From contig NZ_CP007451.1 of assembly GCF_000626635.1 (NCBI RefSeq), positions 2,542,001 to 2,606,000 on the forward strand: DNA of 64,000 nt, given 5' to 3'. A program made the translations under genes and the position numbers. Below, piece after piece: positions 48,913 through 49,650 of this stretch. Origin of the DNA: Draconibacterium orientale (GTDB taxonomy: Bacteria; Bacteroidota; Bacteroidia; Bacteroidales; Prolixibacteraceae). Within the stretch, counting starts at the first letter, position 1, and every line of letters begins with the position of its first letter. The notes beneath the pieces are model-generated. The model was not told the DNA's origin and made no database searches. It saw nothing but the letters and a program-made list of their open reading frames with translations.

Positions 48913-49155
48913 AATAGATCCGGAGGCGTTTCAAAGTTAAATCCATCGATAATTTCGGGGAATCCAGTCTTTGTCTGAAGATCATCTTAATACCAATGAG
49001 GAATTAAAATGAGCCTTATTTCAGGGAAATCCTCCTTTTGATCGAAATTCCCACAATAATCTCATTGTCTTCCCTAAGGCTCACAACGAGATTCAATTGA
49101 TATTATATGGCACACGATTTTCCTTTTTATTCTCCCTTGTAACTAAAATAGCCTT

Positions 49156-49380
49156 GCGAGGTACTAATATTATGGCGCGAGGTATGAATAATAGTGCGCG
49201 AGGGGCTAAAAATATAGTGCGAGATAAAAATATTGTGGTGCGAGGTATAAAAAATAGTGTGCGAGGTAACCTCGCACATGAATAAAAGTACCTCGCAAGC
49301 ATATATTATTACCTCGCATATAAATATTATTACCTCGCGGGTGCATATTAGTCCCTCGCACGGTAATATTATTCCCTCGC
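49156..49380. repeat. Mirror-symmetric 21-bp-pitch array, 6 + 6 copies of GCGAGGTA
   Basis: Forward 8-mers begin at 49156, 49177, 49198, 49219, 49240 and 49261 (GCGAGGTA, with GCGAGGGG and GCGAGATA as variants). Reverse-complement 8-mers end at 49275, 49296, 49317, 49338, 49359 and 49380 (TACCTCGC, AACCTCGC or TCCCTCGC). The pitch is exactly 21 bp throughout both halves. The halves meet in GCGAGGTAACCTCGC (49261-49275). The 13-bp spacers are AT-rich and often contain TAATATTA. Transcribed, it could fold into one long hairpin. No gene is called here. Confidence 0.92.
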
Positions 49381-49650
49381 AGGCCTTTATTGTTAGCAGG
49401 GGTAACAAATACGCGGCAGATTATGATGTATTAGCCTTAAATCTTTTGTCTGTCAATAAATAATACCTGGTGTTTAACAGTAACAAATTGGCGCAACCAT
49501 CTCCGTAAAATGTTTTGCGAATTCACAGGTGCGAGCAGGGAGAATTGTGGTTCTTCGCCCGCTTATATCCCTAATTTTATCCACACTTTTTCAACGGACG
49601 ATTGTTAGTTATTGCCCCCGCGAACACCCTTGTAAAGCGGAGGATTTGAT

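What the first reader, a model, noticed from the sequence alone, without database searches (positions are those of the whole stretch)
49156..49380. Twelve-site, mirror-symmetric array with an exact 21-bp pitch upstream of topoisomerase IV
Seen: six GCGAGG-type 8-mers on the + strand at 49156, 49177, 49198, 49219, 49240 and 49261, then six reverse complements ending at 49275, 49296, 49317, 49338, 49359 and 49380, with no pitch error. The two halves meet in GCGAGGTAACCTCGC. Twenty-one bp is two helical turns, so all motifs of one half face the same side of the helix, as in plasmid iterons and phased operator arrays. The spacers are AT-rich and varied, so the 8-mers and the pitch look like what is kept. 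I know of no described element with a 6+6 inverted, strictly phased layout. Inference: a binding platform for a multimeric DNA-binding protein, perhaps tied to chromosome topology or segregation because parE-parC follow, or a long double-stranded RNA/cruciform source.
Basis: partly seen in the sequence, partly recalled or inferred. Interest (0 to 1): 0.92.

Follow-up and report, generated by a model that had tools for sequence, protein, structure and literature searches.

The report
Solo copy of a gene-linked DNA-site array
A strictly spaced, mirror-image row of twelve short DNA motifs turns out to be a gene-less copy of an array that is otherwise found right beside a gene for an unknown helical protein, and many related genes have their own arrays, which points to an undescribed kind of protein-DNA system.

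Summary
The array is real: twelve GCGAG cores, exact 21-bp pitch, 3-bp dyad junction, plus an unreported cap unit at each end (window 49135-49401). The genome (genus Draconibacterium, Bacteroidota) holds two more. One begins 8 bp after the stop codon of a 236-aa helical, internally duplicated protein without a Pfam match. Homologues of that gene occur in 48 of 140 family genomes. Of 49 gene loci examined (of 122 matches), 36 have six or more 20-22-bp phased units downstream and none upstream (control: 1 of 273 ORFs downstream). Core motifs differ among paralogues and follow the protein tree better than chance; the GCGAG genes in the tree form one clade. The window array is thus a solo copy of a gene-linked array type. 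Cores are conserved across species while spacers drift, and mirror spacers are not complementary, so a selected hairpin or dsRNA is not supported. Best reading: a DNA-level, helically phased binding platform for the linked protein; binding is untested. The parE link looks coincidental: the other copies lie beside unrelated genes, and most relatives lack the array at parE. PQLLE and DUF6261 genes also carry periodic arrays, upstream. My searches found no description; the cellular role is unknown.

The parts
49135..49155 (+). left cap unit, CCTTGT variant of the YCCTGY cap
   Evidence: CCTG-type caps recur in many relatives
49156..49176 (+). left unit 1, GCGAGG core + 15-bp AT spacer
49177..49197 (+). 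left unit 2, GCGAGG
49198..49218 (+). left unit 3, GCGAGG
49219..49239 (+). left unit 4, GCGAGA (sixth base differs)
49240..49260 (+). left unit 5, GCGAGG
49261..49275 (.). dyad junction GCGAGG-TAA-CCTCGC (innermost core of each half, 3 bp apart)
   Evidence: the same junction spacing is present in all 17 arrays located with half-array patterns, two of them with one core mismatch
49276..49296 (-). right unit 1, GCGAGG on the minus strand
49297..49317 (-). right unit 2, GCGAGG
49318..49338 (-). right unit 3, GCGAGG
49339..49359 (-). right unit 4, GCGAGG
49360..49380 (-). right unit 5, GCGAGG
49381..49401 (-). right cap unit, CCCTGC on the minus strand

Best explanation
The window array is a solo copy of a cis array that belongs to an undescribed, array-linked gene family. 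The cognate gene type of this array (GCGAG) lies elsewhere in the same genome (G000:C1:3608392-3609096); its own array of the same type begins 8 bp after its stop codon. Each 21-bp unit is a directional double-stranded DNA site: a core (GCGAG, positions 1-5) and an AT-rich stretch centred about one helical turn further on (A14), so that cores and AT contacts of all units, and the two central cores (10 bp apart), fall on one face of the helix. Inferred, not shown: the helical, internally duplicated 236-aa protein, or a paralogue, binds one unit per protomer, and twelve protomers assemble from both sides towards the dyad into one wrapped or bent nucleoprotein body that acts locally, for instance as an architectural or insulating element between genes. 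Shown: anatomy, conservation, gene linkage, and that array motif follows the protein tree better than chance. Inferred: binding, assembly, function.
For: The genome holds three such arrays (the profile search adds none). Six or more phased units lie downstream of the gene in 36 of 49 family loci and upstream in 0 of 49; control 1 of 273 ORFs downstream, probably array C itself, which lies in that sample. On a tree of 46 proteins the nine GCGAG-labelled genes form one clade (97/90), and all motif labels need 13 changes against 21.8 shuffled, 0 of 200 as low. In orthologous units, core positions differ in 3.6% of pairs, position 14 in 5%, spacer positions 7-21 in 28%, position 6 in 46% (units with more than one core mismatch and pairs with poor spacer identity had been left out). 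With a looser rule (up to 2 mismatches) 38 of 1390 core bases deviate. Same-slot spacers between species are 63% alike, other slots 51%, neighbours within an array 49%: units are individually old, not freshly duplicated. Left and right halves share one consensus. Imperfect cores: 13 of 61 units in genomes lacking the cognate gene, 21 of 217 in genomes having it (Fisher p 0.025). Protein: two-fold internal repeat (hhalign E 5e-5 over 93 columns), pI 9.6, all-helical model pLDDT 87.
Against: No binding data exist. The model has no PDB match at E 0.001 and no recognised DNA-binding fold among the listed ones. The four non-GCGAG paralogues checked are acidic overall (pI 4.7-5.1), though with a basic C-terminus. 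13 of 49 gene loci have fewer than six units. The motif-protein fit is imperfect: CCTGY needs 7 changes, GGAAAG is scattered, two loci are unclear, and the G001 C55 gene, close to the GCGAG genes but not in the tree, has an ACGAG-type array. Solo arrays persist in G026, which has no family match, and in G035 and G036, which lack the GCGAG-type gene. The units are not independent, and a few of its imperfect ones look like decayed caps. Gene and array may simply be co-inherited (B is syntenic).
Confidence: 0.55

Rival explanations
1. Gene plus array is an old mobile or selfish cassette, and solo arrays such as the window's are its non-autonomous relics (in the manner of RAYT/REP or MITEs).
For: Patchy distribution (48 of 140 family genomes, up to 9 matches per genome, several broken copies). 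Array present or absent between close relatives at parE. A 33-residue C-terminal relic of the gene beside an array in G127.
Against: The gene-linked array keeps synteny across species; solo loci A and C have the same neighbours in several species. Copies are not near-identical: random unit pairs share 7.0 of 15 spacer bases. The G000 protein has no hit on plasmids or phages, and the family alignment none in viral contigs. No transposase-like domain found in the gene.
Confidence: 0.2
2. RNA-level element: the transcribed inverted array forms a long clamp-and-loop hairpin (3' UTR, bidirectional terminator, or protein-bound RNA).
For: GCGAG arrays start just after the gene's stop codon. Cores of the two halves are complementary by construction. 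Solo arrays C and D lie between convergent genes; 24 of 47 family genes have a convergent next ORF, against 34 of 92 for own-genome gaps of at least 200 bp.
Against: Mirror spacers are no more complementary than non-mirror ones (6.55 against 6.71 of 15; 0.40 against 0.43 in CCTGY arrays). RNAalifold covariation term +0.17. 477 of 500 shuffles pair as well. Pitch patterns of the two CCTGY halves differ. Arrays of PQLLE and DUF6261 genes are upstream of the gene.
Confidence: 0.15
3. Topology or segregation element tied to topoisomerase IV because it lies upstream of parE.
For: It ends 373 bp before parE.
Against: Arrays B and C have other neighbours. 13 of 20 relatives examined show no array at parE, among them G033 (95% identity over a 209-aa ParE segment). 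Coarsely sampled GC skew (20 samples) puts all three arrays inside one arm, at neither switch point.
Confidence: 0.04
4. Functionless degenerate 21-bp minisatellite.
For: 21-bp tandem repeats with CGAG occur in many genomes of the phylum (55 of 392 match a five-unit pattern).
Against: Core and pitch conserved while spacers drift; units keep slot identity across species; neighbouring units are not more alike than others.
Confidence: 0.06

Closest known systems
ParR/parC and TubR/tubC plasmid centromere arrays (PMC5016525, passages read)
   Same: arrays of iterons beside the gene of the small protein that binds them; protein superhelix and DNA wrap; R1 parC is split into two regions
   Different: ParR is ribbon-helix-helix, TubR has an HTH; short (about 10-bp) repeats; a motor protein is part of the system; here a helical protein without a recognised motif, 20-21-bp pitch, chromosomal, array after the gene, no motor gene noticed beside it
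Iterons of Rep_3 plasmid initiators (recalled)
   Same: directional units of about 20 bp with a GC core plus AT tract, in phased arrays
   Different: no Rep_3 protein in any of the 11 array genomes; inverted halves; the linked protein has no plasmid hit
BrickBuilt MITE of Porphyromonas gingivalis (PMC4596501, abstract and passages read)
   Same: intergenic array of 23-nt units in Bacteroidota with inverted ends
   Different: tandem repeats without spacers, 19 copies in one strain, transposon-type ends, no linked protein gene mentioned in what I read
TAACTGA heptamer repeats (PMC4679880, abstract and Bacteroidetes section read)
   Same: intergenic repeats, also in some Bacteroidetes, unknown role
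   Different: direct repeats of one heptamer, in the main genome mostly near start codons; no cognate gene family described in what I read
NCBIfam NF052641 PQLLE family and Pfam PF19775 DUF6261 (uncharacterised)
   Same: PQLLE is a homologue (hhalign E 4e-8, 198 columns); genes of both families carry 20-21 or 41-42-bp periodic arrays
   Different: their arrays lie upstream of the gene; DUF6261 shows no detectable homology to the 236-aa protein

Membership tests
ParR/parC or TubR/tubC partition system | centromere-binding protein with ribbon-helix-helix or winged HTH | tested here: inconclusive
   no Pfam match at E 1 for the G000 protein; all-helical model, no fold match at E 0.001; absence from a fold list is not proof
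ParR/parC or TubR/tubC partition system | adjacent motor NTPase (ParM, TubZ) | tested here: inconclusive
   no conserved NTPase partner seen in the ORF lists and flank comparison, but no profile was run on the neighbours
Rep_3 iteron replicon | Rep_3 (PF01051) initiator in the genome | tested here: not met
   0 of 11 array genomes; 3 of 37 genus genomes, none with arrays
CRISPR array | near-identical repeats with acquired, unrelated spacers | tested here: not met
   5-bp core only; spacers inherited slot by slot across species
MITE / REP-RAYT | transposase-mobilised copies with TIR and target-site duplication | tested here: inconclusive
   array present/absent between species but no precise empty site seen; no transposase domain in the linked gene
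Structured RNA (Rfam) | match to a described family or covariation support | tested here: not met
   only a sub-threshold rli47 hit, 17.7 bits against a gathering score of 200; no covariation
PQLLE family (NF052641) | score over the curated cut-off of 80 bits | tested here: not met
   236-aa protein 33.1 bits, E 4e-8: relative, not member

The most novel reading that the evidence does not exclude
Bacteroidota chromosomes carry a large, undescribed set of private protein-array pairs: paralogous helical proteins (this family, PQLLE, perhaps DUF6261), each recognising its own helically phased array of 20-21-bp (or 42-bp) units next to its gene and at a few solo sites, a modular addressing code for chromosome architecture or local expression in which protein and site motif change together.
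Probability: 0.35. Interest if true: 0.92.

Novelty: categorically new. Interest (0 to 1): 0.82.

Why it matters
If the linked protein binds its array, this is an undescribed class of sequence-specific nucleoprotein system with several natural paralogue-motif pairs in one genome. It would give testable functions to uncharacterised protein families, explain a set of periodic intergenic repeats in Bacteroidota, and offer a natural series for studying how a DNA-binding protein and a twelve-site array change specificity together. The spacing rule makes direct phase-shift experiments possible.

Full report
Observation. The sequence holds what was described: six + strand and six - strand GCGAG cores at a pitch of 21 bp, meeting in GCGAGGTAACCTCGC. 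One core reads GCGAGA. Two cap units (CCTTGT, 49135; GCAGGG, ending 49401) extend the same pitch outward and were missed. Random placement of the same number of sites gave a longest exact-21 chain of 3, once in 2000 trials, against 6 and 6 observed.

Copies and relatives. The own genome (one contig, 5,132,075 bases) has three arrays: A (window), B (around G000:C1:3609131-3609376) and C (G000:C1:3345297-3345521). A junction pattern with up to 2 mismatches finds arrays in 11 of 37 genus genomes. In the family it finds 12 of 140, the twelfth (G127) being a divergent array in another genus. In a named scan of one genome per species the only AT-spaced array outside the genus was in Carboxylicivirga linearis. 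A sequence-only profile of 25 arrays extends this to 20 of 140 family genomes, with divergent CGAG-type arrays in other genera; four or five of the weaker regions did not convince me.

Anatomy. Over 221 units of 24 arrays the consensus is GCGAG-B-TAnTAATAtTnnnnT. Positions 1-5 are 95-100% conserved, position 6 is almost never A, A14 is 95%, and left and right halves give the same majority consensus. These units were accepted with at most one core mismatch, which flatters the core; with up to 2 mismatches allowed and looser pitch, 38 of 1390 core bases in 278 units deviate. Nearly all steps are 21 bp, but single units of 24 bp (G035, array A) and 22 bp (G005, array C) occur. In orthologous units, core positions differ in 3.6%, position 14 in 5%, spacer positions 7-21 in 28% and position 6 in 46% of 370 pairs, chosen for spacer identity of at least 9 of 15. 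Without that choice (but with the better of two orientations taken), same-slot spacers are 63% identical between species, against 51% for other slots and 49% for adjacent units of one array. So units are individually inherited and not a fresh satellite. CCTG-type caps recur at many array ends, but the gene-side cap of array B reads CATYGT-like and some ends have none. By simple geometry the cores (21 bp), the AT stretches (about 10.5 bp on) and the two central cores (10 bp apart) share one face of the helix; that is inference from the spacing.

RNA or DNA. If a hairpin were selected, spacers at mirror positions should be complementary beyond the common consensus. They are not: 6.55 of 15 for mirror pairs, 6.71 for non-mirror pairs. 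RNAalifold gives a covariation term of +0.17, and 477 of 500 shuffles of a full mirror structure pair at least as well. Rfam has no match near threshold.

The parE locus. I compared the region upstream of parE in G000 and 20 relatives (36 of 37 genus genomes have a parE match). G000 and G005, G030, G031, G034, G035 and G036 carry the array; G008 (98% identity over a 209-aa ParE segment) keeps both caps and two units; the other 13 show none. An alignment of 12 of these 21 shows the array and its immediate flanks missing together in the four array-less genomes included, while the parE-proximal segment is conserved. The array is thus not part of the conserved parE promoter region.

The gene partner. 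Array B begins 8 bp after the stop codon of a 236-aa gene. The same gene lies beside B-type arrays in G001, G005, G008, G030, G031, G032 and G034, a paralogue (47% identity) beside a divergent ACGAG-type array in G001, and a 48%-identical homologue beside the G127 array. Flanking genes show that B is one orthologous locus in the genus, with local differences. The G000 protein has no Pfam match at E 1 and a sub-threshold relation to NCBIfam PQLLE (hhalign E 4e-8 over 198 columns). Its two halves are homologous (E 5e-5). The AlphaFold model is all-helical (pLDDT 87, pTM 0.65) without a significant structural relative.

A family of gene-array pairs. A profile search found 122 matches in 48 of 140 family genomes and 9 of 23 genera, often several per genome, some broken. 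I inspected 50 of those loci, the 30 that the search returned and 20 that I chose; 49 entered the unit count (one fragment dropped). Of these, 36 have six or more phased units within 480 bp downstream; none has that many in the 420 bp scanned upstream; 13 have fewer than six on either side. Among 273 control ORFs of this genome one has six or more downstream, probably array C, which lies in that sample. Motifs differ by paralogue: GCGAG, CCTGY, GGAAAG, GTGAT, GTAGG, GATCCG and others. In many CCTGY arrays even the pitch pattern is regular (20,20,20,21 to the junction CCTGYNNNRCAGG, then mixtures of 20 and 21), again without mirror complementarity. On the protein tree of 46 members the nine GCGAG-labelled genes form one clade (97/90), and all labels together need 13 changes against 21.8 in shuffles (0 of 200 as low); CCTGY needs 7 changes, GGAAAG is scattered and two rows were unclear; related copies share labels by descent. 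The caps of GCGAG arrays resemble the CCTGY core of the sister arrays in register, which suggests descent from that type; this is inference.

Solo arrays. All 8 genus genomes with the GCGAG-type gene have arrays, against 3 of 29 without it (hypergeometric 4e-6; relatedness not removed, and the gene-linked array itself counts). On a ParE tree of 28 genomes the three states need 5 changes against 10.0 in shuffles. In genomes without the cognate gene 13 of 61 cores are imperfect, against 21 of 217 where it is present (p 0.025; units not independent, a few decayed caps counted). This is suggestive of relaxed constraint, not proof. Array A of the window is such a solo copy; no family gene was found in the window.

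Wider setting. Of 392 phylum genomes 10 match the PQLLE model at E 1e-5, 6 of them over its cut-off. Of 19 such loci (the 236-aa gene itself left out) 13 score 0.5 or more for a 20, 21, 41 or 42-bp period upstream and none downstream; some of the 13 are weak or of skewed composition. Control: 7 of 269 ORFs upstream. A scan of 400 kb of the own genome for these periods found 13 stretches: array C, three short-motif satellites and nine further arrays of about 300 bp. Three of the nine lie upstream of DUF6261 genes, overlapping the start or 38 and 210 bp away; these are the only DUF6261 genes found in the fetched loci. Repeats of other periods also occur near ORFs, so not every periodic stretch need belong to this system. 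Extrapolation gives of the order of a hundred such arrays in the genome; that is a rough estimate.

Verdict. Shown: a conserved, strictly phased DNA array, inherited at the same loci in several species, tied by linkage and motif to an uncharacterised helical protein family. Inferred: that the protein binds it and builds a dyad-symmetric complex. Unknown: the cellular role. parE proximity, dsRNA and satellite readings are not supported; a selfish cassette origin remains open. No description of the system was found in the searches named under Tried and rejected.

Noticed in passing
L316:11700-12030, L319:9120-9390, L320:3810-4110 (own genome): About 300-bp arrays with a 42-bp period lie upstream of DUF6261 genes, 3 of 3 such genes found in the fetched loci; several units look palindromic.
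   Followed up: partly
L322:1530-1890: A 42-bp-period array directly upstream of a 152-aa gene with an AraC-type HTH domain (PF12833).
   Followed up: partly
L294 and L304 (own genome): True PQLLE-family genes with 21-bp and 20-bp phased arrays upstream.
   Followed up: partly
window 49577-49585: TTATCCACA, identical to the recalled DnaA-box consensus, in the conserved parE-proximal segment; kept in 10 of 12 aligned genomes (not in G005 and G027).
   Followed up: no
window 49127-49408, minus strand: A 93-aa open frame with a 7-residue period runs through the array because 21 bp is seven codons; probably spurious, not tested.
   Followed up: no
G127:C35:115215-115313: A 33-residue C-terminal relic of the gene family lies just before a divergent CGAG array.
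   Followed up: partly
L203:4776-5231 (G130): A run of about ten CGAGTAAG-type 21-bp units followed by a terminator-like hairpin in place of the usual junction.
   Followed up: no
L316:10523-11401: An Abi_2 (PF07751) gene neighbours a DUF6261 gene-array pair.
   Followed up: no
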